Below, piece after piece: positions 1-64,000 of a DNA stretch of 64,000 bases (the stretch's first letter is position 1; each line of letters begins with the position of its first letter). A program made the translations under genes and the position numbers. The DNA comes from Setaria digitata (lineage: Eukaryota > Nematoda > Chromadorea > Rhabditida > Setariidae), in the NCBI GenBank assembly GCA_003640385.1, contig RCAB01000073.1:124001-188000 (forward strand), written 5' to 3'. The notes below the pieces were generated by a model that was not told the origin of the DNA, searched no databases, and was given only the letters and a program-made list of their open reading frames with translations.

Positions 1-98
1 TAGGAGGGTTTTTAAACAGAGATTTTGCTCGTGGGAAAGTTTAAATTAAATTACCGTGATGTCAGATATTTGAGCAAATCAAAATGTCACAGTTTCAG

Positions 99-17123: not shown

Positions 17124-20100
17124 ATGAGTGAGAGCAGTAAAAATATTACTTTTACGAATATTATGGGACAGGTTCGCTATTTTTTTTTTTTTTTTTTTGA
17201 TGATCGAAGGTTTTTTTTACGTGAAACAGATATGTGCACACTATAAAAAGAACTGCATACTGTCAAAAAAATTTATAGCAATTAAATTAACTAGATTGGA
17301 GGATTATTTTATTTTGAGCAAATTTTAGTTCTGTTGAATAATTAGCTCGAAAAATTTAAAGTTGCTGTAAAAATCTCACTGTTCATTAGAAACAAACTAA
17401 TAAAAGTGGAAGCAAATTTCTAATCAAATGAATTTCCATGAAACTATTGAGTAAGTTGATCAAAAAATTCAATTTTTAATTCTAGAATTTTCTCTCAGTT
17501 TGTAAATGCTTTAGACTGAAACTCTAAAAATTTGAAGGGCCGTGTCAATCAACTCGGCGGTGTTTTTATTAATGGGCGACCACTTCCACAACATATTCGA
17601 ATAAAAATAATCGAAATGGCCAGTAATGGAATTAAGTAATTCCTTGATCGAATTTAATTATTTCACGTTGATAAAGGAAAGCTTAAAGTTTATTGACTGC
17701 TAAAATATTGTCAAGGAAAAAATTCTAAATAGAATTTGAAAGCTCACAAATCAGATTTTGTCCTTTTTTCTGAATTTAGTGTTTGGGACTCAGCATTTTT
17801 ATATTCTATTTCAGATTTATTGAATAGCTATAAGTTTTAAATAGTTCAACCTGAAAATTTCAGACCCTGTCACATTAGTCGACAGTTGCGTGTATCCCAC
17901 GGAGCTGTATCGAAAATCTTGAATCGCTATGTCGAAACAGGTTCTGTATCGCCTGGACAAGTTAGTTTTCTTTCTGATTTGAAACTAAATGTATACAGTA
18001 AGCATCTTTATTTTAATGCCTAAATCATAAGAATCTGCTGATCTGATAATAGATATTCCTTGAGTCCTACATGGAAAATGCCAAAAGATTCATTTGAGAG
18101 ACATATGGCGCTGAGCTCATTTTCCTCGAATTTTCAACACAAATTCATCAGCTTGTCCTAGGTCAGCACACGTCGGATTTCGTACCCCCTATAGCGAGAT
18201 TTATACGCCATTCTTCTAGAGCAGTTGTTGCTCCGGGGCTGCAAGGGGTTGTTGTCTTCTTGATTAGTGAACAAGGAAAAGAATTGGGTGAGCTGTTGTT
18301 GCTCAGGCAGATGTGTGTTAATGAGTACTTCGGTTGAAATGTTCACTTTTGATTGTTATTTGACAGTTTGATGAAAGAATTTTTAGTTCTTTGAAATTAT
18401 GGGTCTTCATGTTTGAATTCAAAATTCTTCACAGTATGATTTAAATATTTAAAATAACGATGTGGTTGAAAATTTACAAAATAGATTTTTACTAGTAGAT
18501 AGCAGAAGATGAAATATAATAATGTCTGAGGTTTCAGTTGCCTGTGCTTTAACTCACTTCACAGGCAATAATTTTATTCGAATACTTCGAAAATTTAAGT
18601 AAGCAAATGAAAAGTAGAGATCAATCTTTTTTTGCGTCTCGAAAATTATTTGAAAATATTTCGAAAACGTTTCATAGAGCACTGGTACTGATTAATCAAC
18701 AATGTTATTAATTCCAAATGCTTTTCTGAAACTTTGTTCGCTACTTTGAAATTTAGTTCTAATTTTAGATCGGAGGTAATCCGCGTTCGCGATTGGCTAT
18801 TCAAGCTGTTGAAAAGCATATTTTGGCATTAAAAGCAAAATGTCCCAATCTGTGTGCAAGCGAATTACGCTCTTGTCTTATCGAACAAGAGATCTGTTCT
18901 CCAGAAAACGCACCTACCGTATCCTCCATCAACAGGTGACTTTTGTTTCTATATTTCTGGAATTTTTAGTTTTTAGACAAAATCTAACTAAAGTCACAGT
19001 TTTCTAGTAATTTATCTATCATTATATGTTTGATTAAATCTAAAATTTTAGGAAAAAAGTCTTCTTCAGGCATATTCGATCAAAAAAACTCTCTAGCTCG
19101 AACGACAAAGAAATGAAGCCAGCGAAAAAGAATCAGCTGAATCATAGTATCGAACATATTCTCGGTCTACCCAGTAGTTTGTTTTGGGTTTCCATAAAAT
19201 CTACTTTTTGAACTTATCTTTCTTTTAAAGAATTCGACTAGTCAGTTAAAAGTAGAGTTAATAGTGGACCAAACTCTCCTTCAAACAAGACATATAATAA
19301 ACTTATAATAAAAACTACGTAGATATCAGAAGTACAGCCTAACGCATATAAATATAATGTATCATTGTTATGGTAGATTTTAAAATTAACAATCGCATGC
19401 TTCATAAATTTTATTAATTACATCGCTTCAGAAGGTTTATTGTACAATTTAAAAACAATCCATCAAATCAAAATCATTGGTAATTATAAGATAAAAAGCA
19501 TTATATGGTCTAATGGATTTTGATTAGTGATGGGCTCTATTAATAATTGCGTATGACATTGTTTCTGATAGAAATTTGCTCTTTGAAACCCGTTAAAATT
19601 ATGATTTTCATAACCTGCCTGCAAACCTGTTATTGAATTACAACACTGACGATTTGCTACGCATTTTGAATGATGAAGAATTTAAGGGAAACCACAACTA
19701 AATATGAGATTTCAAATTGTTGCACTTAGAATTATATACATTAATTTTAAATTAGAATAAGCTAAATTAGAGTGCATCGCAAGATTTTGTTCTTATTAGG
19801 ACATGAGGTGAAGAAGACTTATTTATTAAGTAATCATGAATTAATTAGTTGGCGGTTTGGTCTTGAATCGTAGCTGGTCAAATGTTCTTAACTAATATCT
19901 AATTTTTAAAATTGACCCTTGACAAGTGTTAGGTGCCTGACAATAAACTATTTTTGCATAATTTGAATTGTTTAGACCAACTGACAATTGCTAATATCAT
20001 GTCAGCTAAAAATTTATTAAGTTTTTCTTATCTGATAATCAGTTTTATTAATATAATATCTGGTCGTAAGGCATGCAAAATCAAAGATAGTGCAGTATTA

Positions 20101-23100
20101 GAAGGTTAAATTGATCTCAGATGTGATTTCGAGGTTAAAATTTTTTTCCCAATGCGCAGAAAACTGTCTGAATCTTGAGCCAACTTAACAATATAGTCTG
20201 TCAAACTTAGAGTCGTTATTTGCAATTAAGTTGTATTCCAATTGACGCATAATTAATGAACATCCACATTCCTACAAAATGATTTATCAACTTCCAAGAG
20301 ATGCTAAAAGAGCATTGACATTACGAAAGAAAAAATGTAGAGGAAATTATATTCTTGAGACAGCCATATATTTTCACGGATTCTCTCAAACTTCTTCCAA
20401 TGCCACACTATTTTTGGTTTTGCATATTTTATCTTCTTTTTACTACGCAAATTTTTGATTAATTTTCTTGATAAGATTCTGATCTCGTGAGGTAATAAAT
20501 CAAACGGTCTGGTGATGGAATGATTGGAGACGGTGTATGAAGCACTTCCGTTTGAATGTTCCTCTTCACTGTTTGTAGTCAGTGGGTGCAACTCAAGATG
20601 ACATACAAATCAAGTCGTATCATTCCACTTACCTTAGCTCGATTTTCTGAAAATGAATGACTTTTCGGATGTTCACACTTGCAGAGGAGTGTTTATGAGG
20701 GCAGATTTCATCCTTGGTAGAGAAAATGAGCAATTTGTCATTAAGTGTCATCCGAGTATTGGACATAGATTGCGTAACTTGTTTCACCTTATCGTCTGCA
20801 TGTATCTCGCTTGAATTAAGTCACTAAGAAATGTCACCATAAAACGTATTACTTGGTGATTAAAAAATTGACGAATTAATTCAGCTTTGTTAGGATTAAA
20901 TTGTAGCATATAAGTCTTATTGTTCTCGTAGTGCACATGCAATAAGTATATCTTCATGCTAAAAGTAAATTTATCACAAATGGCACTCAATTTTTTTCCT
21001 TATTAATGCAATATCAATGGCGATACATATAATTTCTGTTTGAATCTGTCTTCAACTAACACATCATAATGAATTCTATTTTCTCTTCAAAAGTTATCTT
21101 CACTGCTATTGTTGCTGGAGACCGAACATTGATCTCATGTATAAGTCGCAGGAGTTCAAAGTAATAAAGAATTAATTATCAGAAACGCAATCTGTTGATA
21201 TCTGTAGATGTGAGCATTATCATAGATTGTCCATCTTCTTCGCCAAACTAATCTTATTAACCACTCGTCTGCTTTGTTGGCACGCGACCTACCTCTCCTA
21301 ATCATCTTATTGCCTCTACGGGTAATCCTTTTCTATGCTTTACAAATAGAATATAGTCGGCAATTTCGTCTTGTATCAATTGCGGCTCGAACAATTTGTT
21401 ACTCGCATATCTTACCTGGACGGCGAATATTTTAGGATTTTTGTTATTTCATAAATTACTCAGTACCTTGTTTGGAGCTAAATGGATTTGGGATTCCACT
21501 TCAGATTTACACTTAGACGAAAGATGGTGGATGGGTTAAGGTCTTTCTTAAAAGATTTCTGTTAACTTATAATTACTGCTCTAATACTCAACAGGATAGT
21601 GACTAGTGGAATCTTTCGAAAAAAGTGCTAAGGAATGAAAATGAGAGGCAATTAAAAAACCATAAACTTCAATACGGACGTATTTATCACCTTTTTATCT
21701 TACCCTGCATCTTATCGGTCTTTGTCACTTCTGCTCTCGAGAATGTGATCCAAATATTAGTAGTTGGATGGGTTTGCTTTATTCATTCGGTTTTTCTTTG
21801 ATCAATGCTGCAGTTTGTCGTCACTACATTTAAGGATCCACAAATGTTACCGTATCCAATGGACGAAATCATTGTCACACCTTCTTCACAACTTCTATTG
21901 CACCAATTATTCCATGCTTATGATGTCGGAGTTTCTATGAAAAACTTTCAGTAGATGGCTCAGTCTTCTATCAACTATTATCTGAGTGCTAAATTCATTC
22001 TATGAAATAGTATATCCATTTGGAAGCTTCCTCTTATTTTTACTAGTTTCGTTTCTATTGAAAATGTTTCCTAACACACAATTTGTGCAAAATAATTAAT
22101 GAATCTAAATTCAGGTGCAGATAATATCCCAGAAACGTCTCAAGCAAGTTATTCGGAAACAGAAGAGATTAGAGAGAAAAGGGAAGAAAATCTGTCAGAG
22201 GATGGAAATTCTGGAAAAAATGGACGAGTACGCCGAAATAGAACAAGTTTTAGCAGTGAACAGCTTGAGGTTCTGGAAACAGCATTTAATGCAAATACTT
22301 ATCCTGATCAGGATGAACGGGAACGGATTGCAATGAAAACAAATCTTAGTGAGGAGAAGATCATGGTATGTGGGTTTTTTTGCAACAGTTCTCAAGGCAT
22401 ATTGACTTGGATTTAACAGTAAAAGCGCCTTGGACCATCATTTTATGATTTGAAATTTTAAACGAACTTTTTTTCCCATCGCTTCGATGTTTCCTTTAAA
22501 TTCTAGTGAACAGTAAACTTTCTAAAAATGTCAGTACTGAAATTTGTAGCATATTAAGCACTTTTATAGTTATTGTAAAAATGAAATTTTTTTACAGACA
22601 TCCACAGTTGAATGATCAATTTTCAGACTTGGTTCAGTAACCGACGAGCACGTTGTCGAAAGAATTTTACTTTCACAGGTGCTAGTTCGCTTTTGGTTCA
22701 GAACATTTCTTCTATGCCGATTGTGCCTCGATCGCCTATACAGCAGGTTTACGAATTAAATCTTTTTTAGACACTCAAATGCTAAATATGCTGAGACAAA
22801 TATTTACGACAAGGTTGCATATTAGAAACTGAGCATTTTTCTCTCTCTTCTATAGTCTGAAGTTTCTGGTATTAGATTTTATGACGAAAAGAAGCAGCCA
22901 AAAGGTCCAAATTGTAGTGCTTTCGCTTCATAATTACTCTTCCGAAAGAATGGACTGTGCTGAAATTTTATTTATTAAGTATCCAAGTTCTAATTATTGC
23001 GTGCTTCCTGGAACTTTCATTAATTGCTTTCCTACTTTTCGCATGATAACTAACTAACTGATTAATTCTGTAAAATTTCACAAATTCCGTGAAATGAAAT

Positions 23101-23562
23101 GTTTTTCAACTGTTCTTTTTTTTTCTGCCAACTTCATTTGCATATTTGAAAGTCTGCAAGGCTTAAAATCATAAGCTTCACTTACACGGCAAGTATGCTG
23201 TTCCAGTGGCAGGACAAAAGTACAGAAATTAAAAAGAGGAAATGATAAAAATAACTCGTAGCTGTGGTCGTTTTATTCATGTAATTAAGATTGATATCCT
23301 TGCTAATATTTGTTGAATGAATCTACTAAAGATTTGCATCTTTAAATGATTAATGTTCGAATTTTATTTGGATCATATTCTCAGTTCACTGTAATGAATT
23401 GAGGGAATTGATTTTTATTTTTTTTTTCAGTCCCCAACTGTGCCGTTATTTTCATCACAAATGAATTTACTCTCTTATCCTGTCAGTTCAACATCACCCG
23501 TAAAGTTTCAAGATCCATCAGTGCTACCGATTTTATTTTATCCACAGTATGCGTCTATATGA
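17124..23562 (+). CDS. pax-3: Pax3/7-type transcription factor, first tandem copy
   Basis: Sequence-specific nuclear regulator of neural and epidermal development (family knowledge). Eight exons give 344 aa: 17124-17171, 17538-17635, 17864-17960, 18769-18935, 19052-19173, 22115-22365, 22627-22746, 23431-23562. The short first exon ends [10 protein letters not shown]. The paired domain fills about 17-140 ([58 protein letters not shown]). An octapeptide HSIEHILG lies at 168-175 with two non-canonical inner residues. The homeodomain is at about 214-273 and ends [12 protein letters not shown]. Ser at homeodomain position 50 is the Pax signature; the Cys before the final RK, and Thr where Val or Ile is usual, are unusual. 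Paired domain, octapeptide and full homeodomain together define Pax3/7. The ATG follows an acceptor (TTTTGCAG, ending 17091), so trans-splicing or one further upstream exon is possible. Confidence 0.92.
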
Positions 23563-26500
23563 TAATAATTACCGTTTCTGTCAGTGTATATGAATAGTAA
23601 CAGTGAAGCTTTTTATATTCATTTTCTTTTTTTTGTTGTTATGAATGAAACCAGTTAAAATTAGTTAAAATTACATTAAAATCTATGCAGAGGTTCTCAT
23701 TCTGTGTAAATTTAGATAGAAATATATCGCAACTGTTTCACTTACTTATTTTTCGCTTGACCTATGCTTTTCTTTTTTTGAAGTGAATTTCACATTCCAA
23801 ATTTAGGATCTTTGTTTTTTTTTTTTCAGCCAGATAAAAAATTTTGAAAGCTCTTTTTTAAAGATTCATGTGTGAACTGGTATTCAAACATGTGAACTTC
23901 TTCATGAAGTCCCATGGAAACTTTCTTCACCTAAAAGATACAGAGTATTTTAAAATAGATGTCACGTTTTGCCTGCTTCCTGCGATTCAAAGGATTCAGT
24001 ATCTCAGTAGCAACAAAGTTAATTGGTGTAAGAAGTTGATGAGCAATTTGCATAAATAAATATTTTAAATTAAAAGGCAAGATGAGGGAGATGAGATTTT
24101 TATAAAGAGTACTCATTCCGCCTCTCAATATTTTTATGAGCTCCATGTAACGGTACCTCGTTATGAGCGCCCCATGGTAGTGGTCATCAGTAGTGATTAA
24201 CAGATTGCTATCGACTCTCATCAAGGTGTCATTGTTTTTAAGAGATACCGCAGGATAGTTAACAGATTGGTTCGTCCAATGGGATTATCATCAAATCTAA
24301 TAAGAGAGAAGAGTGTTTAAAAAAAAAAGTTTCTCGACAAATTTAGTCAATGATAGCAATAAAATCAAAACTTTCGAGTCTTAATTTCATACTACAATTT
24401 AAATAAGTTCAGTGATCTATGTATTCTTTAGAGAATTACTTGTAATCTTTTTAAGTACAATAGAGTAATAAATTCGAAATCAACAAACATTGGGTATAGA
24501 TCTTTCTGCAACATAGTGATTAAAATTATCACTATTTGGATTGGTTATCAGAATTGTGAAGTGTAAATTTCAAGAAAGTTTTGTTCCACTACAGGAACAT
24601 AAGGCCTTCAGTCTAATTCAATTGATGCAGGCTTCCTTGCTCATTCCGAAGTATTCCAGAATAAATAATGATTCTGTGAGATAGGTGATGAATTAATTAA
24701 TATTTGCTTGGTCTTCACGAAATGTGAAGTGATAACGATCAGCCAGGGTACGTACTGTTATATTTCGCATATCATAGCGCTGGGAATGAATATTAAAATG
24801 GAGGTGTGAGTAACCTTGTAAGATGACCCATCAATGTTTGCACACACACACACACTTCAAAAGATTGTAATATTGATAAGAATTCTACTGAACTTAATGA
24901 CTGACTAACTGACTGACCGATTGACTGAGTGAATGAGCAGATTGATCATTGAGAAATTCAATGTCTAATTGATTGAACTGTAGTGTTAAAATGATGCTTT
25001 CCAAGTCAAAAATATAATTTATAAGTCGGAATGTAAGCTCTTGTAAGAAATCTAGAAGTTTCTCGACCTAGTTTCATTTCTCATTTTTTAGAAATCTGAT
25101 TGCTCATATCATGTTTTAACACTTAGTTTTTGCTATTCTTCTACCATAAGGAGAAACTATTAATTAATCAAAATTATCCGGATATTGCGATTCTCGAGAT
25201 TCTGCAAGTAAGGAATGCTGGTGCTGAAAAGCTGATAAACAAATATACCTTTGATTCATTCATACACATGGTAATTTCTTCAGCGGTTATGTTTTGCTAA
25301 ATTATTAGAAAAAAAAAATTACAATTTATTGCTTGATTAGACAAAGATTGATTTTATCGGATACAGTTCATTATAATTCCTTGCCAACAAATCATGGCAT
25401 GTTCGCCGGGAAGCATCAAAACAAACATTATTTCTGAAGAGTAAGCATTTCCATGAAATACTTATTCGACATGCAAATAAACAATAACAAAGTTTAATTG
25501 TTAATTAAGAACTTTCCACTGCTTTCAAACATGCGCAAGAGGGAAAACTCCTTGGAAGAGCGAAAACTCAAAAAATAAAAATTTATCTCAAGAGAAATCA
25601 ATAAGAAAGAAAAACCTGTGGAACAGAGTCAAAGGTTAAGTGACTATATAATGTTTGACAATGGCTGATATTATTATCACTGACTCACCGTTATCAGCAC
25701 CATATGTGCTTTAACCATCAATCATCAAACATCTACAGAAAAGGTCGTTTGGTGCTTTTCTCATATTAATTTATCAAATATTTAAGTGTAATTTATTTGA
25801 AACCAATTATCGCTTTCTTCTCTACACATTTAATGTAATCAAAGGGAATGTGATGTGTATCTGTGTAGTTGAACAAATTGTCCTTGTTGGGGTTGGCCTC
25901 TCTTTATGTCATTCAATACTTTTTACACTCCAAATCATCAAAATCAAAGCAAAAAATCACTGAAAACTGTAAGGTCAGAAAAATTACCACTTTTTCTTTT
26001 CTCTTTATGAGCAGAAAATTCGAAAAGTGCCGCCGGTATGAAAACGATTAAAACGACACTTCATAATTATATATCAATTTTTTGGTGCGGGCCGGGAAAA
26101 TTGACTTTGTTTGGAAAAAAAAGGAAAAAAAAACGTCCGAAACGCAGTTGCAGCTGCAGCAATAGACGCTGCACCACTCAACCATTATCGCTTTGTAGCC
26201 CGTCACTGCTCGTTTAATTTATGTTTTAATTAATTGATTCCGATAGAAAACTGAAAAATTCTGCCATGTTCTGGGACGAGTTTTTTGCATAATGAGCTGA
26301 GCAGAACCTGAGATACAATATGCCAAAGAAAGAGAGGGTTGAGAGGTTGGTAAGGTGCTGGAGAATATTTGAGAAGTTCTGAATTATTTATGAATTGAGT
26401 GATTGTTTGCCCATTTACACACGTCTCTGTCGTTGTTCTAACGAAGATTGGAAATAGTTCGGATAATTTGTCGGGAATGGGGTCTTCTAACAAAAAAAGA

Positions 26501-29402
26501 AACTGTTTGCTTTCTCGAAATTAGTTATTAATTTCTTTTTTCCACAGATCTGATCAATCTCACTCTGCACAGGTTTTTCCTATCACTGTTTCTTGCAAGC
26601 TCATCTCAATACTGAATTACTATCAACTATATTCTCACTGGGTGATATCAATAAACCATTTTTCATTGATACTTCTCATACTCTTTCACTTTTCCACGCT
26701 TATCAAAAGGGAACATATAAAATACACCATTCATAAAATGCATGTGGAGATAAGCGTACGTTAATGTATGCTTAGTACGTGAAACGTGAAGAGGTGTACT
26801 TGGAAGATGAGTTCCAGTGATTGAAAATGGAGCATATCTGAAGGTGTAATAGGTCAATTTGATTTTCATGTGAGGGAAGTAACGACAGGTATGATAATGA
26901 TGCATGGTTAATTAAAGAAGAGTAAATCAAATAAACGAAAATTCATGGTCAACTTGGTCACGAAAAGAAAGATCATCCAGTCGCATATTATTTTTGATTT
27001 ATTTAAAAATTTTTTCATTTCATAATCACTCATTCAAAACATGATTCTCATGGACATGCAGTGGACCGTATGTCCACTTTGAAGTGCAAGAAAATCAGTA
27101 ACAAAAAAAGACTTTAGGAAAGTTATGTATTGGTTCGGATAGCTTCTTTCAGTACTGACAAGCACTGTAAGTTGTAAGACATATTTATCCGAACAAATGC
27201 AACTACAGGAAACTTCAGCAGTAAAGAAAGCGAACTCATTATTAATCAACAAATTAACAAGTGAGAATAATTCTACTTTTTGCGAAAGGAATCTTTTTTT
27301 ATAATATTGAGAAAATATTGCTATCGTTGTAAAAGAGATGGATTTGATTCCGAAAGTGTAAATATATATTTGCAAACTCTGCGCTATAACTTCGAAACAA
27401 CATTCTCAAAAAGCTTAACTAAAAAATTGCTCTGTGCATAACATGAAATTATTAAAATTTCAACGATCGATTCCTCAATAAATCCTTTCATTCATAAAGG
27501 AGAAAAGGTGAATGCATAAGCATAAGGTTACATTATTCTTTGTTCTGGTCATACACAAATTATATAGTACATATATATATACGAGTAGTATATAATTGTA
27601 CTCACAGAAACTTGAATATAATCCGAAATCCAGTTTCCAAATTCCAGTTCTCTAGAACTAGATTAGAGAATCGAAGCTTGAAAAATAAGATGATAAAAGA
27701 AATGAAAAAATTGAACTCGGATTATCGGTGGTAACTGCAATGTTTAGAAGTGGGTAAAGCTTCAGTACCTAAAAATCAGAAGATTTATTATGTCTTTGTT
27801 TTAAACTTGAATCATACGATTGAATTTCGCAGTATCTTATGACTGACATAAGGAGACTGTTCTCTTTGAGACCAGTCATCAGGATTTCAACTCTTTTACG
27901 AGGAATCTGTGAGAGGGCAAGCGTGGTGCCAGCATCGTGGTAATTCCAACTCTCAAAATGTATATCGTCATTGTTGCATTGAAAAAGTTCGTAGTTGGAT
28001 CTGGGTCTCAGGACCTGGTTCATTTCTTGGATGAAAGCTGGACTCCTAAGCTAATTTTGCCAGTTTGAGTATACATCATTTTGGTAATGACAAAGTCAAA
28101 GTTTCATCGTTCTTACGGTGCTTAATTCTTTTTTAAATAACTGATGTTAATTTCTTTTTGAAATCGAAATAAAATATTAAAATTGATGAGCAAGTTTCGT
28201 GTCACATTTAATAACCCATTAGTTATTTGCTCACTTAATTAACAAGCACTGTGAAGGAAGGATAAAAAATGTGCAGTATGAAATTAAGTTTTTAAAGAAA
28301 CTACAATAGCATAATTGAGCTGTAGCTACATTTTCTTTTCCTGTGTGCTATTTGTTTATAACATACCTTTTCATTATTAGAAAAGGTGTTAAAATTAAGA
28401 TAAGAGAAGACTTTTCTCCTTGAAAAGACTTTTCTCTCTGAAATATATTTGAGGATTATTAAAATTAAAGAAGCCTTAAACTTCTTTGCATGCTTTTGTG
28501 TAATTTATTTAACCTCTAGGATAAAAAGTACGTCAACGTATAGATTCATTTAGGAACGAGTGCACTACCTCTCTTGTCATGTAGGATCTGAATCCGAGAA
28601 GTTTTAACCAATCTATTGAATAGGTGAGGAAGCAAAGATTTAATTCTGGCAAGTGCTGTGCGCTGGAAAGATTGCGTGTAATTTCTGAGTTCACTCTCAC
28701 ATTCCGAATATAATGTCAACCTTTGACCCGAGACTTTTTCCACCGTGCTGAAGATTACTTCCCGTAGAACTCATAACAATTTAACGGCAATCGATGCTCA
28801 TTCGCTGTATAAAGTGATAAGAAATAGAAGTTGGATGATGGGAGTGATAAAGGTAACATGGAACTGCCCTGTGTCTGATACGGTACTTAGAGATGGGATG
28901 TTCGGTGGGGGCCTGTAGCCATAGGAGCTTAGTGTGGAGGCGGGGCAGAAATAAAACAAACACACGAAAAGGACGGGAAATTTTTGGGTGGTTAAGAAGG
29001 TTGTGATGGGTTATGGCAGTGTATAATTATCAGCCGCCAACAAAAGAAAACACCGCGGCAGAGCGGGGATAGTGGGGTAGGAATTGCGGGGCTTTCGACT
29101 CCTCAGTTCCGTTGGTTTCCTGCAGTATTTTGTGAATGGATAAGGAACGCGGAGGAGTGATGGAGATGATAAGAGGCAAAGCGACCGTGTTATGGTAGTA
29201 GCAAGGAGCATTCATATTTTCGGATACATTAAAATAATTTCATTTCAATCAGAGAACATTCCCACCCCCCGAAGACACCTTTGGACAACCGACGCCCCGC
29301 ACATCAAACCATCAAAATTATCACTCCTTTTTTAAATAATCGGTAAATGGTGTGAATTGGTTGTTGAAGTTTTTGTTATCTCTTGGTAGTACCAACACAG
29401 TA
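23563..29402. other. Long intergenic region between the two Pax genes
   Basis: About 5.8 kb in which I see no supported exon. It holds a (CA)n run at 24841-24855, a degenerate GACT-type repeat at about 24898-24950, short AT microsatellites near 27568, and a distinctly GC- and purine-richer block at 28860-29180. A C-run (29262-29270) lies about 130 bases before the start codon of the second Pax gene. The composition change suggests a promoter-proximal or regulatory block, but nothing specific can be named. Confidence 0.5.
24841..24855. repeat. (CA)n microsatellite
   Basis: Fifteen bases of perfect CA repeat, in the spacer between the two Pax genes. Confidence 0.85.
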
Positions 29403-32400
29403 ATGGCGTGTACCACAGGTAGTACCAATACCATCGCCATCAACAACACTGTCGCTACTGCTGGTGACACCGCCGCACTAACTTCCAACCAGCATTCCTT
29501 CACATTCGCCAATATTATGGGACAGGTAAAGTTATTTGTTTTTCTTTAACTAGTTGAAATTTTAAATGGCCCATTAACACTTGAATTTCTGCCTGCAGCC
29601 AAGATAGTGAGAATTATTAGTAGCAAATTAAAACGGAAAGAAATTCATCAGATGCTCTGATGAAAATACTACCTATATTTTTCCTCTTGTTAGAAAATTT
29701 AGAGAACATCTAAAATCTTTTAGAACTCTTAAAGCTTCACAAAATTCTGCATCATTTTATTATGGTCCTACTTGGATTCATTCCTGAAGGCTTCTACTCG
29801 AGAATGACAGAAGTAATCCTCTGAATAATCTCAGCATTTCTTTCAACCTAATAACCTACGATCTTCAGATAACACAACTTTAGATTTAGTCTTGCTTTTC
29901 ACAGAACAAGAATTGGGCGCATCATTTAAAGTCGAACATTAACTAATAAATTAATTCTATGTTGTATTCCCAAATGGCTTAGAATTACTTGTGGAAGTAA
30001 GCATCTATTTTTGCTTCTCGTCTAACACTCTTAATTTCTATTCCTCTAGAATCAATAAGCACAGTTGCAGGGTCGAGTAAATCAGCTTGGTGGTGTATTT
30101 ATCAACGGACGTCCGTTGCCCCAACACATTCGGTTGAAAATTGTTGAAATGGCTACTAATGGTGTGAAGTAAGTCTGCCTCCTTCTAATTTCTATTAAAT
30201 ACTGTACAGTGAAACATCGGATTATCACAGTTTTAAACCGCAATTATTCTTATCACACTATTCTTGCTAGTCTCATTATCATTTCTATGTTGCAGTTGTT
30301 AATCATTCAATATCTGCGTGAGCGATTAAATAATTTTTTTCGTCTTTTGTCGGACTTGGCAAGCTTAATTTCAGTGCCTATAATTTGTGTAGGAATATGT
30401 GAATTATTTTATTTTATTATTATTTTTTTTTTTTTGATGTGCACCATTTTGCAGAATAAAGTAATTATACCAAATGATAACGAAGCAAATTCTCTTTTAT
30501 GCTCTGAATACTTCAGTCATGCAAGTGTCAGGGAATTCAAATGTATTTACCTGCAAATAGCACCTAGACTCTCTTAATCAAAACCCTTNGTAGTCATGCA
30601 AGTGTCAGGGAATTCAAATGTATTTACCTGCAAATAGCACCTAGACTCTCTTAATCAAAACCCTTTATTTATTGCCATAACTGACACTTCAAAGACTACT
30701 GAATATTTCCTGCGCAAAAGTCTACTTAAGTTTCAGTTTAGTGTATTTTAGTTTTAAATAATTTAAATCTGTAACTGATTCGTTGATGTAGCTGCTTAAC
30801 AAATGCACTTTATTCAAAATTCTCTCCTGAAACGTAGGAAGAGTTTCCTGAGAAAATGGATTTGTTGAGAGACACTGTACTGCTTGCTAGGTGCCGTATG
30901 TAATTAAAACGTAATGCTCAATGTCTGACATCAGAAGTTTTTTCCAGTATATCACAGTGTTAGACGTGACAGCTGTTGTACTATTTGAATCAACTCACAT
31001 TCTAAAAATGGTAAATTAAACAAACAACTTTAATAAATTATGTTCGGAAGAAAAGAATCAAATAAACACAATGAAATTTAATTACCTCTTCCTGTTATAG
31101 CAAGTGTATCATTCCGTTCAAATGACCCATGTTAATGTTGAAGTAGTTGCATTCAACATAATTTATCTGAAAAAGTAAATTGTACACACCTAGCAACTTT
31201 CTTCTTTTCAAACCCCTCTTCATTCTCCCCTTAATGACACTTTTTTGGTCATTAAATTTAAGAGCGCTATTTATTTTCTTTAACCTTTTCTGGCACAAAA
31301 AAGAAAAGCGTTTCATGGGTGGTCTTTTCTATTTTGTTCACTTCTGAAAGTTTTTTTCCTGGGTTCTTATCTGTACTCTGTAAAAGAGATTGGCTCAGTG
31401 ATCCAGCATAAAGAAACTTGTTGCAGCCTTAGAAAGGTAAGTTAGCATTCAACATCGAGAAGCTTTTGTATTTGTTATTAAAAATTAATTAAATTTATTT
31501 TCTCTGTCCAGTTTTGCTGTTACTTTTTTCTTGTTAAAATACTACTGTTAAACTTCAGTTAAGCAATATTTGGAATTTTCTATAAAACTCTTGCAGACCT
31601 TGCCACATCAGTCGACAATTACGTGTGTCTCATGGTTGTGTATCAAAAATTTTATATCGCTACGCTGAGACTGGATCCGTATCACCTGGACAGGTTGGCA
31701 ACCCAATTTGTACGTGCAAAAAACCGGAATCAGTTATAGGTTTAAATCTAAGAAAAGCTCATACAAAAAGTGAAACAGTCACTTGTTACAGCACCTAGAA
31801 GGAACAACAGCATATGATACCTTTAGAAGAGAACGATAAATAAATAATATTATCTGTTGGGAAAGACAGCCATCAGTCATCATCTTCTTTAGCGTCGCAT
31901 CTGTTTGCTTTAGTTTAGTGAAGTTTATTTGTTGACATCATTTCACTGATTGTATTTGACGTTGATTGACATATTCACTCACTAATTGATAACATTCATT
32001 TGATCAAGTTATGCTCGGATAGACAAAAAGAAGAAATATTGAAGGAATAAAGATTTCTCATAAATCATTTTTATAAATTTAATGACAAATATAAATATAG
32101 AGACAGAAAATTTAAAGAGTAAAACGTTAACTTCAATCTTAAGAAAGTGAATCAAAATAAGTGACAAAATTCCCAGTGTAACCACTTAAATTAATATGCA
32201 TTGAAATTAATCCATCGCTAGGAAATATTCTGAACTTAATAATCCTCGAATAATTCAAAAAGCATGAAAATAAGGAACCGGCTTTCTTTATTTTCAGTTC
32301 CGGTATTTAGCTTCTTCTGAACACGTATCTGACACTTAATTACTTTGCACAATAAAGCAAAAAATTATATTAAATTTTGTTAATAGTTTGACTTACCTAT

Positions 32401-35400
32401 TGAAATTCACTTTATTACGGTGAATTTATTTTGTTAAAATGAGAGAAGAAATAAAGAAATGGAGGCTTCCCAAAAGAAAAAAAGATTTATTTGTAATTTG
32501 CTAACTGGATTTGTTTTCTGCGACACTGTCCCACAAATTAATTTTCTTATATTCAGGTGTGCCTATATTTTTTCCCAAAATATTTTAGAAAATTGAACAG
32601 ATACACACTCCTTAAAAGATTTTCATCCATTATTTTGATTCAGAATCAAAAATGGGAAAATTAAAAGGTAACAAATATCCCTTAACTATTATTTAAAAAT
32701 ACTGTATGATTGATTGATTCTATTCACACATACAGTATCCGTACAGTATTTTATTAAGTATCAAGGGTATCTGACTTTTTAAAACCTTGAATATTTTATA
32801 ATAATTTTATATTCTCAATAATTTTCGTTGTGTTTTATTTATATTACCAATTTTAATTTCACAATTATTCAATACCATTTATACCTGTCTATTTATTAGT
32901 TTTTTTTTTCCCGAATTTTAAATTAAAATACAACAGTTATATGAAAATTTTAGCGGGTTTATTAAACAACAACAGTCTGTATTTTCTGACTTTAGGGAAC
33001 ATCAGAAGTTATTATCTCTTAGATCAACAGGTGTAAAATTGTTAAATGTAAAACACGTTTCACCTACCATTGACCTTCTTAGGCTAAATTTCATTCTCAG
33101 AAGATTGTCATGTTGAACTTTTACTCTTACTTACTCGCCTAATTTTTTTTTCCGATTGAAATGTCACAATGTTAAGATCGGTGGCAATCCACGATCACGT
33201 AAAACGATTTTGGCTCTGGAAGAGCACATAACACGAATTCGTCAAGATCAACCCTCTATCAATGCTCACGAAATTCGATCACTTCTTATCGATAAGGGAA
33301 TTTGCAGTCGTTCCAATGCACCTACTATTTCTTCAATACATAGATTTATAAGGTTAATACATCAGTTTTTAAACATATTCCAGAATTCCTCATTATTTCG
33401 AGAGAAATGTTAACAATTTTTAATGTATGCAGAGGGACTTGATTTACTTGAGAAATTCTTCTACTCTGGATAAATTATTTGGAAAATTTTATCAATTTCA
33501 TTTCTATAAATGTATAAGGTTTTGGAACTTTTATAAAACACAATTTCAGGAATTTTATCATACTAATAGTAATGCAAAAACATAGGTTTCTGAATCATTA
33601 ATAATAGGCGATATTTCAGAGATGCAAGTGTGCGAAGCGGAATTCAGAATCAGTACACATCGAAATCTTTTGCATTAAAGCAGTCCAAAGTCTTTACCTT
33701 GAAACATAGTATAGATGGCATTCTTTCTACCACTGCAGGTACTAATGTGTTTTGTTGGATGCTTTTTTTTTTCGTTATAAATTTGGCTCCTATAAGAAAT
33801 GGTAATGAAAGGTTATTTAGATTTCCAATGTTTTTAAATTGCTTTTTTCATTTGAAAAATTGTGATACTTCAACAAATTAAATAGTTGCACAATGTTCAA
33901 CGGTATTTGCAAAACCAATCGATTGCTCACTCTTGATCATTTGATGTTAGATAACTTTACCATATAGTTGCTGCTAGGCAACTTTTTAGAAGCAAACACA
34001 GATTCTAATTTTTCCGAGAAAATTCGATTTGTCGGAATGTAACAAATAATAAATAGTTATTCACATTCCTAAAAATACGAAAAAAAAAGAAAACCTTTCC
34101 AAGCTGACAGGTAATTGTTGCTGTTCATTTAAGATATAATTAACACTATAAAATGGCATCGGTTAAAATCGTCCATGTATGATCGTCCAGTTAATGATGC
34201 GCTAAAATACTACGCTAAAATTGTATTTTTCTTCTCAAAATTGCAATTTTGGCACTGATTGAGCAATTATTTAAAGCGTTCAAGCGGACTAATTCATTTT
34301 TGCTTCATTACATTACGACACGAATCATGTAATAAAGCCTAATTTGTATTCGTTTATGTTTTTTTTTTTTTGTAAAAAATTTTCAGCAATTCGCTTCATG
34401 CTCGAAAATTTTGAAGTCTCTTTTTTTTTGCTTACTTGTTCTTTATTTTCAAAAATTATTCAGAAATGGCATCGAAGTTACTATCTATCCAGTCACTGAT
34501 TTAACTCTTATCATGATATTTTTTTATTGATCCTTTGAAGTTTGCAAAATTTCCGAGACCGAACAGTTCAAGAAAATATTCAAACAATTCACAGATTCAT
34601 ATTCACCCTCTAATCATCTTTTTAGAGGTGGTAAAAAGCATCCAACTAGAGATGAATTTCATGACTTTCTTGATTTTAAAGCTGAAACAATCTCTCCAAG
34701 AGAGAACGAAACACTTTCTGTCTAAAAAACAAATAATAAAAGAGTTAAGACTCTAAAAGAAAGTGAAATAAAGATATTTGTTAAACAAAACATTTCAGTA
34801 ATAAATATATTTCATTATTGTAGGGAGATGTGCCACCTCTGAAAGATTACTCTCAGACTGTCAAAGCGAACTAGTCAGTAGGACAAGGAGAAATCGAACA
34901 AGTTTCACACAGGAACAACTGGAAGTGTTAGAAGCAGCCTTCAAAGCGAACACCTATCCTGATCAGGAATTGCGTGAGCGTCTTGCTGCGGCAACCAAAC
35001 TGGATGAGGGTAAAATACAGGTTGCTTGAAATACTACTTTTTTTTTTTTCAGTTGAGTGTGACTACTTACTTGTCTTTCTTTATTTTCAATAAGTTCCAA
35101 AATCGGAGATTCTGAAGGCACCATGCAACTGCACCTTTATTGTTGTATATTTCAAATTCTACTCACTCGGGACATTTCAAAATATTCTTCGGCATTTTCC
35201 AGGTTTGGTTTAGCAATCGTCGAGCACGCTGTAGGAAATCATTAGCAACATCAACATCCAATGCATTCATGTTTTATCCAAATTCTTCTCTGCCTTTTTC
35301 GCATGAGGTACTGAAATTTTTCTTCTGGTGCAAAATAAATAATTCTAAATACTTATTACTTGTAATTAATTGTTAACTAGTTTTTGAACTACTAATTGTT

Positions 35401-35687
35401 CAATCTCATTCTCCTCAAAATGGAAGACTTTTAGAAATAGTTAAAAGTACTTTTAAACAATGTCGAAAATCAAAATTACAGAACTTGGGGATTTCAAAAG
35501 CGAATTTTTGGAATTAGAGTCATATTTGGGTAAAGATTCACTTTAGGACGTCACAACGCTAACCACACCAGGCCTTGCTACGTCTCTAGTACTGAATCCA
35601 CGTTCCGCTGCAGCAGCCGCTGCGGCTGCAATACACTCAATAAACTTCGCAGACTTATCATCGCTGTTATTTCCGTCCAACGTGTAA
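29403..35687 (+). CDS. pax-3: Pax3/7-type transcription factor, second tandem copy
   Basis: Paralogue of the gene at 17124. Eight exons give 351 aa: 29403-29525, 30071-30168, 31597-31693, 33177-33352, 33620-33738, 34824-35020, 35203-35307, 35547-35687. Exons 2 and 3 are exactly as long (98 and 97 bases) and in the same phase as in the first copy. Exon 1 is longer and Thr/Asn/Ala-rich but ends with the same NIMGQ. The paired domain is at about 42-168 ([38 protein letters not shown]). The octapeptide HSIDGILS at 194-201 is close to canonical. The homeodomain is at about 224-283 ([32 protein letters not shown]), with Ser at position 50 and the same RARCRK ending. The C-terminus carries eight consecutive alanines (326-333), a feature of repressor-type tails. 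The ATG at 29403 is the first in the frame, and GTG at 29352 is unlikely to be used. Confidence 0.92.
30515..30665. repeat. 74-bp direct repeat flanking N at 30589 (assembly junction)
   Basis: Bases 30515-30588 recur without a visible mismatch at 30592-30665, separated by N and three bases. It lies in intron 2 of the second Pax gene. Perfect identity around a single N is what an unmerged contig overlap leaves. Confidence 0.85.
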
Positions 35688-41775: not shown

Positions 41776-44700
41776 TCAAACAAAATATCGCTTATTTTGC
41801 AATCTGAGGGCTTCAAATCCTACAGTTGTTGTTCGTGGTAACAAATATCTGCCGTACAGTTCCAACTGTAAAGCTGATTCTTTAAGAATACCGAGTGTTT
41901 GCAACACTGGGAGCAACGGTGGCTTTCGTGAATGGATTGCAGAAGGAGTGCTGGAAAAAGTTAAGCGCTGACCAAAAGAGTGGGAAGATATTTGATTAAT
42001 TAGGACATTTTGTAAATTTAGCTAATACTGATGAATCCTCGAAATCCTGAGATTTGATCAATGTGGGTTCGAAATCAATTTTTAAAACATCTGCTGGAAA
42101 GATATTAGGGATTCTTGTTTCGAGTAGAATTATCTTAAAATTATAACAACTTTGTCAAGACTTCTTTCTTCCTATCCATACAGACCGATGCAAAATGGAT
42201 CAAAATTTTCGTGAATACTTCACTCTTCTATTCATCCGATTGTTCATCAAAAAAATTTCATATTCCTATCTATAGCTATCACTCCATTATTTATCAAAAG
42301 AGACTATTTATTTAATAGATGGTGATGGCGTTGTTCCTCATAAGGCTTCTAAACCAAGCTGAAGATGTCAAATACTGAACTGAATTCACTGAACTCATTC
42401 CCTGCTCACTCCATTTGCCCATATTTGCAAATACAAAACAGCTTCCCAATACTACTCGGACGCTCCAATCACCGACATTTTGAACAGCAGTGAAAGAATC
42501 ACAAACAAATAAAAAAAAAAAAAAGATACCTGATTAACACAAAATCATCGACAATCTTCGTATAGATTTCAGAACCAGCAGTAGTAGAGGCGAATATGAT
42601 ACTTTCAAAAGGTTGCTTATGCTGGCTGTCCAAGTTGTACACGGGCTCGCCACTGCTGGTTACCTAAAACACCAAAAAGTATCCAATATTATTGGAAAGT
42701 TATGAATCTTCACTATCAAAAGAACCACTAAATGAAGTTCAAAATTCACTATGTGAAAGAGTTGAATATAATTTAAAAAAATCTGAGGCTAACAAGAATG
42801 GGCAAATACGTTCTTATATCTTTCATCAGAATTAAATTAAAGTGGTAGAAAATTTAAGCTCAACATACAACTTAATTTAGCTTGGTAGACATTTGTTTGT
42901 TTCATTTACAATTTTTAGGCCGAGTGCAAATTACATTAAGTGTAGATACATTTAGATACCCCCATGCAAAATTATGACAGGGAAAGTAATCTTTAAATGA
43001 AACCCAAAAACATAAATTTGAAAAAACAAAGGGAAAAAAATAACCTTAAGCCACCGCCAAGTAGCAATTTTCACGAAACCAAAATACTCAATCATTTCAT
43101 TGACAAATTCTAGATGTTTAGCATTATTTGTAACCCACACTGCCAACAATCCTGATTCTTCCAAAAGCTCAGGCAAATAAAAATCCAACATCGATGTTTG
43201 GTCCGCATAGATCGGGTAGCTATACGATTAATATCAACATATTAGCAGCATCTTTTCTCATTTATTCATCATCATATTTTTATCCTATTTTTTACCACAG
43301 AGTTTTGAAAATCCACAAACTGTACAATTATATTTTCACTTACACACTTTTCCTTCTAACAGATCTATTCTCCCAAGGAGGATCCAACAATATAAAATCA
43401 AATCGCTTCCCATCTGAAATCAATACTTAACTCAATGTTTATTATTAATATTTGAAACCTATTAATTTCAATTATCACACCACAGAAGTTACTGTCAAAC
43501 TTGAAACAGAGGAACAAGATAATTAACGATTTCCAAAAATGAGAACGAAAAATTGAAGAGAATTGGTGGGAAATAAAACTAAAAGAGGATTTAAAAAGAA
43601 ATAAACTAAAGGCTATAAAATTACGCTTGATCAGTCCCCTTGACACACATGCATCATTTACGATAAAAGCAGAGAATGGAGGTAAAATAAATTCTTCTCC
43701 TTTGCATCCTGCTGTTATAACTTCCGGGCTAGCGTTTATCCACATTATTAATTCGTTTGGAATATGGTCAATGATTCTGAAAATTTTCTACTTTATATCA
43801 AATATGTATTCATTTTATATATATATATATATATATATACAGAGTCTTTTTAGAGACAGTATCCAGGCATTCTCGCGCAATGCTGCATATTGCTATTAAT
43901 TACAAAAGGATTTCAAAAAGTAAGCAGACTTTCTAAAAGTTCTTTGGAGAGAAAAAAGTACAACGTTCTTTTTTCTAAGTCTTCAAGGACAAAATCCGAA
44001 AATGGACAAGGGTATTACCTATTTTCATGATCCAAAAATATTTCCTTAATACTTTGCCCCGCAACATAATGCAGTTTGTCATAACGAGATAATGGACAAG
44101 GAACTGAAGCTATATTAAGAGCTAAGTTTCGCACTAAATAATTATTGAAATCCAGTAATGCTGACTCTTGCTGCTTTTCATTAAATGCATCCATCTTGAT
44201 CGCTTCGTCCAGCGCCTTTTTTAAAATAATATTGACCTGAAAAAAAGTTTCAAGTGATTTTAAATAAGAAGTGTCAAAATCAAATGAAATATATAGAGAA
44301 TATTTATCAGTATATTAGTATATCATAAAAATTTAGTAACATAAAAATATCCTTTAAAAATATACAAGCTATTTTTAAAAGAAATTAGTAACTATTAGTT
44401 TTAACATCGAGAAGGGAGGAATCAATAACTTACCTTTTGTAATTCATAAGCAATATTCGAAGATATTCCATTCCTTCGTTTTTGCTTCGACCTATGTTTT
44501 TTTCCTGCAGACTCTTTCTCAAACAGTGCCTTAGCCTCTGAATCCATCCGAAATGGTGAGTGTATTGAATAGAATGTTCGGTTTGGTACGCTGGATGTAA
44601 AAACAAATGAACTCTTCTGAGTAAATAAAAGGACCCAATACAACTGCAAGTCCTAGTTCAAAGAAAAAAAATCAAGAAAAATTATCCCACTTGAATTGTA

Positions 44701-46203: not shown

Positions 46204-49200
46204 CTAGCCGAAGATAAATTTTACAAAAAAGAATGTGAAAACGCCAATAATGATGGTCAATACTTTAAGTAGACCACGTCTAAGATCTTGTTCATGAGTG
46301 CTCAATTCGGAACTCAACATTTCGATACATGCAACATAAATGAGTGTTCCAGCTGCGAATCCTTCTAACACAAATCGAATCAACAGTGAAGTGAATGTCT
46401 CCATAGAATTGATCTAAAAGCATAAAAATTTTAAAACAATAAAATTCATTTGAATAAGAAATTGCCTAATGACGTCTAGAATTAAGACAGAATTAAGTAA
46501 AATCTTAAAAATCTTTATCATTCCTTTTTTCTAGAAGGCCATCGCACAAACTACCAACTATGTAAAAATTTTACCAAGCAGTTCCTTACTCAAACCAATA
46601 CTAATTAGGATTAATCGTACTAGTCCAATCTTCAAATTCTTCATTTTATATGCTGCTCATCCTAATTTATCTGAACGATTTGTAAGAATTTCAAACAATG
46701 TGAACAGTGTCTCAACTTATTATGAAAAGCCTATATTTTTCACATTGATAAATATAAAAAGCTTTCTTCAGCTGCGCAAATGAAGCGAAAATAAGAGTAT
46801 TTATTTTGAAATTGAAAAATCCTGAAAGTAAAACTTACTACAAGAGATGAAGACATTCCTGTAGGAATACTGCCTGCAAGTACAAGTGATGATATGAATG
46901 CTGTTTTTGGAGTGCTCTTTTGATGCGCTAAGTTAGCACCAAATGCGAATGAACATAGTATTTCATGAAGCATAATGGCAAATAAAAGACTGTAGAACTC
47001 TGTCGAAATTAGCTGAAAATAAATTCTTTCAGAAAAAAAACTTATCATCATATTCCAAAAGTTCATCACCTCAAAAAAGATTACAAAAATAGACTAAACT
47101 GTTTCATTTGTCTACCGCCAAGCTCTACTGATAGTTCCATTCAAATCTGCCTGGACAAAATTAGCACTTTTGTGGCTTTTTAGTTAAATGTTTTACTGGA
47201 CTTAAAAAGATGCTCCTTTGCTACTTCCACACCATGATCAGATTTAAATTTGTGAAGAAACATGAAGAAAAGGTAACAAATTAAAATTTCAAAAGACGGC
47301 TATACTTCTCACACCAAAATATGCAAACAAAAAAATGACAAAGTATTGAAATAGAAAAATCACCTAAGTTAAATCATATAAAATAAGCAACTAAAAACTA
47401 TTTACAACGGAAAATATCCGATTTAAGTAAGGCTCAGAGAGTTCTTTGACTTGAGTCCTCAACGACTATTTCGAAGACTGTTTCAACTGCAAAATAAAAA
47501 GGACATCTGTAGGGAACAGGAAAGAAAACCATTTGACAAATTCGACTAGCTTTCGTTTAATAAGCATGAAGCAATGTGTTTATCTGACATCAAATTACCT
47601 GTGTCTAGTTAGTTGCACTCTCAAAAAGCAAGTGAAAATAAAACAATTAAAAAGGAAAATAGACGAATCACAGTCTTGCAAAAGATAGCTGAGATAGGTA
47701 ATAACAGAAATTATTCTCCAACTTACCGGCAATCCCAGTGCGATACCTTCAAAGAGTGAATGCATGGAAAGACCAAACAACAAAACAAATGTACTCAGTG
47801 ATAAATTCGATGAATGAAGACCAGAATGGAAATATATGCCACGTTTATGTTTTTGGAAGACCTAAAATATCTCTTATCTAATTTGAGATGATAATTACCT
47901 CCAGGTACAGACAGTAGAATTATATGAAGTTGAAAATCCAATCTTTCCAAAAGTATTGCTGTCTTATACACACTATGATTACAGAACATATGAAGCTATC
48001 ACGATGCTTTCTGTAGCATATGTTGAACTAGTTTTAAAATTTTGATTATTTATTCTTTACCAAAATTAATGTGCTAAGATGACAGTCAGTGAGTGCTACT
48101 CAGAAAAAAAATTTCCTATTTCAGAAAGGCAGGAAACGAACTTCATCACTAACATGTCGAAATTCAATTGATGGTGTATTGTCCACTGGATCAGCGAAGT
48201 TTTCGGCGCTAGGATTCTCTGAAACAAGCGGCTCGATGTCCTCATCCCACTTTAATAAAGTCATCAAACCACTATTGCATGCAGAAGATTCACAGTCTAC
48301 GACGGTGCTCAGCACATTTTCAGAAGTTTTACCATTTGTTATGCATGCCGTATCAACAGAATGCTTGCAAATTCCTCGAGAACCAGATCCATGAAACATG
48401 TGAACTACCTGAAATGAAGTGAAATGCAGCGGTAAGACAACATTTGCTCACTAATAGGCAGTATTATTCCATAAATAATCATCAGCCATTTGTCAGCACA
48501 AAAATAATTGTTCATTTGAAAAATTAATCACTAGAAGTTGATAAAATTAATCACTACACATTGACTATTAACTTCATGAATAAGAAAAATATGACATATT
48601 TTATTAAAAACATTTGGAGATGTGTCAACCAAAGTTGGTATAAACTAACCTCTTCAAGAAAAAGTATTAAAAGAAAGCCCATTAATACGACCAGTTCTGA
48701 ATTTAGAAATATATACGAAAGCAGATCAGAGCAGCCAGCTACTGCGACGCAAACATTTTGAATATGTTCTCCATGTTTTCGAATATGTGGCAAGAGACCA
48801 AGAAAACATGACGATAAGAATATACCACAAGCAAAACAGTTACCCAAAGAAACGGCAAAGCTTGTTTTTCTACAAAACAGAGAATTACTGGACAGAGAAA
48901 TGAAACCTCTCACATATACTATGATAGTTCCAGCACCCTTTGACTAAAAGAAATCAAAACAACCTGCTAGAAAAAAAGTTATGGTAACGAAAGACTAACA
49001 ATTTCTAAGGGAAATAACCTCCGGTACAAAGATTGATAAGTCCCAGCAAGCCTTGAATTATAGTTAAGGTTTTGTTTTTTATCTCCAATAATGCAATGAA
49101 ATCTAATTTTGAGGGAATGTTTGTCAGTCACTTTTACAAAAAAGGAAAAAAACTTAGTGAAGCTTACGCATTACGATTTCCTGATCGTATTCGTCTTTTC

Positions 49201-59302: not shown

Positions 59303-64000
<4,698 letters not shown>

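What the first reader, a model, noticed from the sequence alone, without database searches (positions are those of the whole stretch)
17124..35687. Two complete Pax3/7 genes in tandem in a nematode
Both genes keep paired domain, octapeptide and homeodomain, lie 5.8 kb apart on the same strand and share exon plan (exons 2 and 3 have identical lengths of 98 and 97 bases, and both first exons end NIMGQ). C. elegans is generally described as having a single pax-3, so this looks like a lineage duplication with both copies intact. Divergence is clear in the N-terminus, in the octapeptide and C-terminal to the homeodomain.
Basis: partly seen in the sequence, partly recalled or inferred. Interest (0 to 1): 0.75.

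Follow-up and report, generated by a model that had tools for sequence, protein, structure and literature searches.

The report
Ancient nematode Pax3/7 tandem gene pair
A filarial worm carries two intact Pax3/7 developmental control genes side by side; the pair looks old and shared by several nematode groups, and the laboratory worm C. elegans appears to have kept only the more altered of the two.

Summary
The window is from Setaria digitata and carries two complete Pax3/7 genes in tandem on the + strand: A (17124-23562, 338 aa) and B (29403-35687, 351 aa). Each has eight exons with matching intron phases and encodes a paired domain, an octapeptide and an S50 homeodomain. They lie 5.84 kb apart and differ too much to be an assembly duplicate.

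The interpretation needs correcting: this is not a filarial or spirurid duplication. In trees, A groups with C. elegans PAX-3 and every Rhabditina row sampled (100/99). B falls outside that clade, with B-type genes of filariae, Toxocara, Dracunculus, Steinernema, Ditylenchus and aphelenchs. A Spirurina-only duplication is rejected (AU p 0.005 and 0.011). The duplication thus most likely predates the split of clades III, IV and V.

None of 20 Rhabditina rows is B-type, so C. elegans most likely lost B. The retained A copy is derived: homeodomain T47 and paired-domain A49, where B and the outgroups have V47 and C49.

Weak points: B monophyly is compatible but not shown in full-length trees, hit lists were capped, and there is no expression or binding evidence. 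The public S. digitata model of A lacks the homeodomain that the DNA encodes.

The parts
17124..23562 (+). Gene A, Pax3/7 (orthologue of C. elegans pax-3): exons 17124-17171, 17538-17635, 17864-17960, 18769-18935, 19070-19173, 22115-22365, 22627-22746, 23431-23562; 338 aa
   Evidence: gene model; Pfam; filarial orthologues
17538..18935 (+). Gene A exons 2-4, which hold nearly all of the paired domain, with A49 in the recognition helix ([12 protein letters not shown])
19070..19173 (+). Gene A exon 5, encodes octapeptide HSIEHILG
22115..22746 (+). Gene A exons 6-7, which hold the homeodomain, KIMTWFSN: T47, S50
23563..29402 (.). Intergenic stretch of 5,840 bp between A stop and B start; no N inside it
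29403..35687 (+). Gene B, Pax3/7: exons 29403-29525, 30071-30168, 31597-31693, 33177-33352, 33620-33738, 34824-35020, 35203-35307, 35547-35687; 351 aa
   Evidence: gene model; 100% identical to A0A915Q6T1
30071..33352 (+). Gene B exons 2-4, which hold nearly all of the paired domain, C49 and Y55 ([12 protein letters not shown])
33620..33738 (+). Gene B exon 5, encodes octapeptide HSIDGILS
34824..35307 (+). Gene B exons 6-7, which hold the homeodomain, KIQVWFSN: V47, S50

Best explanation
A and B are an old tandem pair of Pax3/7 transcription factor genes. They arose by one duplication at or before the common ancestor of Spirurina, Tylenchina and Rhabditina. Both types are found in filariae, Thelazia, Toxocara, Steinernema, Ditylenchus, Aphelenchoides and Bursaphelenchus. 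Copy B was lost in the Rhabditina line, so C. elegans pax-3 is the orthologue of A only. Each protein should bind DNA through its paired domain and S50 homeodomain, and recruit a Groucho-type corepressor through its octapeptide (inferred from family knowledge). B keeps the ancestral residues at two DNA-contact helices; A carries T47 in the homeodomain and A49 in the paired-domain recognition helix. The likely reason both persist is division of labour, partly by altered DNA preference of A and partly by separate expression. Shown: gene anatomy, orthology of A with C. elegans PAX-3, linkage in several species, residue changes. Inferred: single duplication, loss in Rhabditina, DNA-binding difference, division of labour.
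For: Gene anatomy. A clade with C. elegans and all Rhabditina rows: 100/99 (31 of 61 rows), 100/99 (21 of 44 rows, long branches dropped), SH-aLRT 98 (46 of 80 rows). Spirurina-only duplication rejected. Diagnostic residues (the 80 rows): A49 in 45 of 46 A-clade rows (one not parsed); C49 plus Y55 in 21 of 22 B rows (one not parsed; window B and its public copy are two of the rows); outgroups C49 in 12 of 12 and Y55 in 0 of 12. Homeodomain 47: T in 38 of 46 A rows (3 have V, 5 not parsed), V in 20 of 22 B rows (2 not parsed) and in 12 of 12 outgroups. Rhabditina: A49 in 20 of 20 rows. Linkage: equal 'longest contig' length for A and B in 8 species, consecutive tags QR680_001099 and 001100 in S. 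hermaphroditum, and a Dirofilaria model that runs from A into B (P0012). No third Pax3/7 locus seen in the genome.
Against: In the full-length trees B is paraphyletic; its monophyly is only not rejected (AU p 0.204, 0.328). In the paired-domain tree B is one clade (89/83, 5 of 5 B rows) but there A is unresolved. Raw identity does not single out the orthologue: the homeodomain of A shares 43 of 60 residues with both B and C. elegans PAX-3, and its paired-domain start 59 of 66 with B and 56 of 66 with C. elegans. A and B are on contigs of different length in Toxocara, Onchocerca ochengi and Aphelenchoides besseyi; S. carpocapsae tags 002287 and 002291 are close, not consecutive. Three aphelench A rows keep V47. 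Absence of B in Rhabditina rests on lists cut at 120 hits. No expression data.
Confidence: 0.8

Rival explanations
1. Filarial or spirurid lineage duplication with both copies intact.
For: C. elegans has one copy; same strand, same exon plan, 5.8 kb apart; A is as near to B as to C. elegans PAX-3 in raw homeodomain identity (43 of 60 each).
Against: Rejected by AU test at p 0.00506 and 0.0106; Steinernema, Ditylenchus and aphelenchs carry both types with the diagnostic paired-domain residues.
Confidence: 0.05
2. Repeated independent tandem duplications in spirurids, Steinernema and tylenchs, with convergent residues.
For: Full-length trees leave B paraphyletic.
Against: Steinernema A+B as one clade rejected at p 0.000107 (group named after the tree was seen); Y55 in all 21 parsed B rows and in 0 of 12 outgroups; B one clade in the paired-domain tree.
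Confidence: 0.06
3. The duplication is older still (all Nematoda or before).
For: No clade I, II or Plectus sequence was recognised among the 120 hits listed, so only a lower bound is fixed.
Against: All nematode rows stand on one side of a 100/100 branch against arthropod, mollusc, annelid and vertebrate rows (without the annelid), so it is not older than the nematode line as sampled.
Confidence: 0.15
4. Assembly duplicate, or one copy a pseudogene.
For: A scaffold join (one N, 74-bp unmerged overlap) lies in intron 2 of B; the public model of A is truncated.
Against: Only 43 of 60 homeodomain residues shared; A and exons 1-2 of B lie in one N-free stretch; open frames with conserved orthologues in other filariae for both.
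Confidence: 0.02

Closest known systems
C. elegans pax-3 / PAX-3 (and Pristionchus pax-3)
   Same: Orthologue of gene A: A49, M46-T47, paired domain, octapeptide, S50 homeodomain
   Different: Single gene (recalled); no B-type partner in the 20 Rhabditina rows sampled
Insect gooseberry / gooseberry-neuro
   Same: Neighbouring Pax3/7 genes with octapeptides, kept together in Drosophila, Apis and Anopheles (PMC7528073, passages)
   Different: Separate duplication: nematode rows lie apart from arthropod rows
Amphioxus Pax3/7a and Pax3/7b
   Same: Adjacent, same orientation, about 10 kb apart, similar exon structure, different expression (PMC6010424, passages)
   Different: Reported as an independent duplication in cephalochordates
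Mosquito loss of paired, with gooseberry taking over
   Same: Loss of one Pax3/7 copy compensated by a paralogue is documented (PMC7528073, abstract and passages)
   Different: Compensation in Rhabditina is not tested

Membership tests
Pax3/7 | Complete paired domain | tested here: met
   PF00292 positions 1-125 of 125 in both
Pax3/7 | Complete homeodomain with serine at position 50 | tested here: met
   PF00046 positions 1-57 of 57 in both; WFSN in both
Pax3/7 | Octapeptide between paired domain and homeodomain | tested here: met
   [18 protein letters not shown]
Pax3/7 | Groups with Pax3/7 rather than Pax2/5/8, Pax6 or Pax1/9 | tested here: met
   100/99.9 in a paired-domain tree of 26 rows
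pax-3 orthology group A | Gene A in a clade with C. elegans PAX-3 | tested here: met
   100/99; unresolved in the paired-domain tree
pax-3 orthology group A | Gene B in the same clade | tested here: not met
   Gene B lies outside the A clade
B group as a single clade | Monophyly of B-type genes | tested here: inconclusive
   Not one clade; monophyly not rejected (p 0.204, 0.328); one clade (89/83)
Tandem pair of Pax3/7 | Adjacent, same strand, shared exon plan | tested here: met
   eight exons each, same phases
Tandem pair of Pax3/7 | Differential expression of the copies | not testable with these tools
   No transcript data here

The most novel reading that the evidence does not exclude
The ancestor of Rhabditida had two Pax3/7 genes with different homeodomain specificity. 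B kept the ancestral V47 binding mode and A evolved a T47 mode. Rhabditina then lost B, and A took over or replaced its targets, so C. elegans pax-3 biology reflects a derived, rewired half of the original system.
Probability: 0.35. Interest if true: 0.62.

Novelty: new member of a known kind. Interest (0 to 1): 0.45.

Why it matters
C. elegans is the usual stand-in for nematode Pax3/7. If its only copy is the derived member of an old pair, loss of function there does not show what nematode Pax3/7 ancestrally did, and filariae and Steinernema keep a factor that C. elegans genetics cannot see. It also gives another independent long-lived tandem Pax3/7 pair beside gsb/gsb-n of insects and the amphioxus pair, and a natural test of function hand-off after loss of one copy.

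Tried and rejected
The third protein search, with a 22-row alignment, was meant to find clade I, clade II or Plectus genes; none was recognised among the 120 listed of 7,924 matches, so the upper age of the duplication stays open. The repeat search of 16000-36500 found no non-coding match between the A and B loci beyond the exon 1 end and T-rich or A/T-rich stretches. No tRNA and no Rfam match at gathering threshold in the window. Eight literature searches for a nematode Pax3/7 pair (two searches returned nothing) listed no title or abstract start that reports it; the papers listed were not all opened. Thompson et al. 2016 on C. elegans pax-3 is not held; it and Yi et al. 2009 on Pristionchus were seen only as reference entries. 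PMC4448998, PMC11006913 and PMC4578762 held none of the terms searched; PMC3890508 had no 'pax', and PMC3359188 and PMC5333810 gave passages only. A homeodomain match on contig C37 (58% over 52 aa) was checked as a possible third Pax3/7 gene: in the 6 kb around it no paired-domain motif was found and the one homeodomain end found reads WFQNRRAK (Q50), so it is most likely a PRD-LIKE gene. Assembly duplicate and pseudogene were rejected on divergence and open frames.

Rows: I chose 78 proteins by hand, plus the two window proteins. Nematode hits left out: P0012 (A-B fusion model), P0014 and P0126 (partial), P0035, P0112 and P0128 (near copies), P0121 (faulty model), P0130, P0133, P0135 and P0139; most unnamed metagenome hits were left out too. 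For one search, 19 of the 80 rows were dropped (partial, redundant or long-branched, among them the V47 exceptions P0134 and P0162), and for a further 17, which took out all tylench and aphelench rows of both types and the four Strongyloides-group rows.

Full report
What is there. The window contains two complete Pax3/7 genes on the + strand. I built both models from splice sites and reading frames. Gene A runs from 17124 to 23562 (eight exons, 1,017 nt, 338 aa). Gene B runs from 29403 to 35687 (eight exons, 1,056 nt, 351 aa). Neither has an internal stop, all 14 introns have GT...AG ends, and the seven intron phases match. Exon 4, which ends near the end of the paired domain, differs by 9 nt in frame (167 against 176); my first end for B exon 4 was wrong and was corrected. 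Exons 5 to 8 also differ in length. Pfam finds a full paired domain and a full homeodomain in each.

Species and check of the models. Protein B is 100% identical over 351 aa to a public Setaria digitata protein, A0A915Q6T1; S. digitata is a filarial nematode of suborder Spirurina. Protein A aligns end to end with filarial orthologues, 84% to Dirofilaria P0022. The public S. digitata model of A (A0A915Q1C7, P0121) is 290 aa, contains intron sequence and ends before the homeodomain. The DNA encodes the homeodomain, so that model is incomplete.

Is it an artefact? No. A and B share 59 of 66 residues at the start of the paired domain and 43 of 60 in the homeodomain. Of the four N in the window (15907, 30589, 53466, 58065) one lies inside a gene, at 30589 in intron 2 of B. 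It is flanked by two identical 74-bp copies, which looks like an unmerged overlap at a scaffold join. A and the first two exons of B lie in one N-free stretch, so the tandem arrangement does not depend on that join.

Which Pax family? Both are Pax3/7. In a paired-domain tree of 26 rows with Pax5, Pax8 and Pax6 chains from the PDB and Setaria's own Pax2/5/8, Pax6 and Pax1/9 exons, A, B and known Pax3/7 proteins form one group of 20 rows at 100/99.9. The genome has other paired-box matches on contigs C257, C64, C238, C194, C645 and C13. The first three read as Pax2/5/8, Pax1/9 and Pax6 (family names by motif, recalled). No third Pax3/7 locus was seen in a search with protein B; one homeodomain match on C37 (58%) most likely belongs to a Q50 PRD-LIKE gene without a paired domain.

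How old is the duplication? Two protein searches returned A-type and B-type relatives from many nematodes (best 120 listed in each). In a tree of 61 rows, 31 rows form an A clade at 100/99: spirurid A genes, Steinernema QR680_001099 and L596_002287, tylenchs, Strongyloides relatives, and all 13 Rhabditina rows including C. elegans PAX-3. B rows are spirurid B genes, Steinernema QR680_001100, L596_002291 and S. glaseri, Ditylenchus, Aphelenchoides and Bursaphelenchus. Holding spirurid A and B together is rejected (p 0.00506; 0.0106 in a 44-row set without long branches). So is holding Steinernema A and B together (p 0.000107), though that group was named after the tree was seen.

What the trees do not settle. 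B is not one clade in the full-length trees. Its monophyly is not rejected (p 0.204; 0.328). In the paired-domain tree B is one clade (89/83, 5 of 5 B rows) while A is unresolved. Raw identity does not pick the orthologue either: the A homeodomain shares 43 of 60 residues with both B and C. elegans PAX-3.

Residues support one duplication (the 80 rows; paired-domain and homeodomain numbering recalled). Alanine at paired-domain position 49 is in 45 of 46 A-clade rows (one not parsed). Cysteine 49 with tyrosine 55 is in 21 of 22 B rows (one not parsed; window B and its public copy are two of them). All 12 outgroup rows have C49 and none has Y55. Homeodomain position 47 is T in 38 of 46 A rows (3 have V, 5 not parsed), V in 20 of 22 B rows (2 not parsed) and V in 12 of 12 outgroups. 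The three A exceptions are aphelenchs (P0134, P0157, P0162). Each copy thus has its own shared derived residue, which fits a single duplication before clades III, IV and V split.

Linkage. A and B have the same 'longest contig' length in eight species: Cercopithifilaria 48,506; Litomosoides 92,422; Thelazia 142,635; Dirofilaria 15.0 Mb; S. hermaphroditum 18.4 Mb; S. carpocapsae 20.9 Mb; Ditylenchus 3.26 Mb; B. okinawaensis 11.5 Mb. Equal length is taken as the same contig; on the long contigs it does not show adjacency. Closer linkage is shown by consecutive locus tags in S. hermaphroditum, nearby tags in S. carpocapsae (002287 and 002291), the three short contigs, and a Dirofilaria model that joins most of A to the first exons of B (P0012). 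The lengths differ in Toxocara, Onchocerca ochengi and Aphelenchoides besseyi; for several other species no contig is given.

Loss in Rhabditina. All 20 Rhabditina rows (19 named, one unnamed metagenome protein; eight are Caenorhabditis) are A-type. Four rows of Strongyloides and relatives and three of cyst and root-knot nematodes were also A only. The lists stop at 120 hits, so absence is not proven for each species; that C. elegans has a single pax-3 is recalled. Patchy loss of developmental genes has precedent: Hox3 and ant-1 are present in some nematodes and absent in C. elegans (PMC11603191, passages).

How it likely works. [quoted passage not shown] Both proteins keep S50 and an octapeptide. 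Position 47 lies in the homeodomain recognition helix and position 49 in the DNA-contacting helix of the paired domain (recalled), so A probably differs from B in DNA preference; this was not tested. The homeodomain of B is nearer to beetle gsb and coelacanth Pax3 (38 and 36 of 60) than that of A is (33 and 31 of 60), so B is the less altered copy there; in the first 66 residues of the paired domain the two are almost equal (55 and 54 against 54 and 53 of 66). Work in C. elegans and Pristionchus links pax-3 to the choice of lateral or ventral epidermal fate and to myogenesis (titles in reference lists only). By orthology those findings concern A; for the role of B I found no data.

Comparison with known cases. 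Neighbouring Pax3/7 genes are known as gsb and gsb-n in insects, and mosquitoes lost prd with gsb taking over (PMC7528073, abstract and passages). Amphioxus has an independent adjacent pair about 10 kb apart in the same orientation (PMC6010424, passages). The nematode pair is a separate origin, since all nematode rows stand on one side of a 100/100 branch. Eight literature searches listed no title or abstract start that reports the nematode pair; most subscription journals are outside that library.

Verdict. The reading as a lineage duplication is replaced by an old tandem pair with loss of one copy in the C. elegans line. It is a new instance of a known kind of arrangement, of moderate interest to nematode developmental evolution.

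Noticed in passing
30515-30665: Two identical 74-bp copies flank a single N at 30589 in intron 2 of gene B; likely an unmerged contig overlap at a scaffold join.
   Followed up: partly
53466 and 58065: At two other single-N sites the 54 bases before the N recur exactly 43 and 92 bases after it, possibly similar assembly joins.
   Followed up: no
17124-23562: Public S. digitata model of gene A (A0A915Q1C7, 290 aa) includes intron sequence and lacks the homeodomain that the DNA encodes.
   Followed up: yes
P0012 (Dirofilaria immitis, 531 aa): A public gene model joins most of A to the first exons of B, apparently an annotation error that shows the same order and strand.
   Followed up: partly
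60-4041, 42955-43227, 46743-47861, 59168-59791: Of ten neighbouring ORFs scanned, JmjN and MT-A70 pass the Pfam cut-off; amino-acid permease (three ORFs) and ZIP transporter (two) are below it; three had no match. Not compared with C. elegans gene order.
   Followed up: no
P0134, P0157, P0162 (aphelench A-type proteins): A-clade proteins that keep V47 in the homeodomain; either reversion or T47 arose after the A lineage began.
   Followed up: no
P0049, P0050 (Ditylenchus destructor): Two B-type entries with very similar sequence on contigs of different length, a possible recent copy or a second assembly.
   Followed up: no
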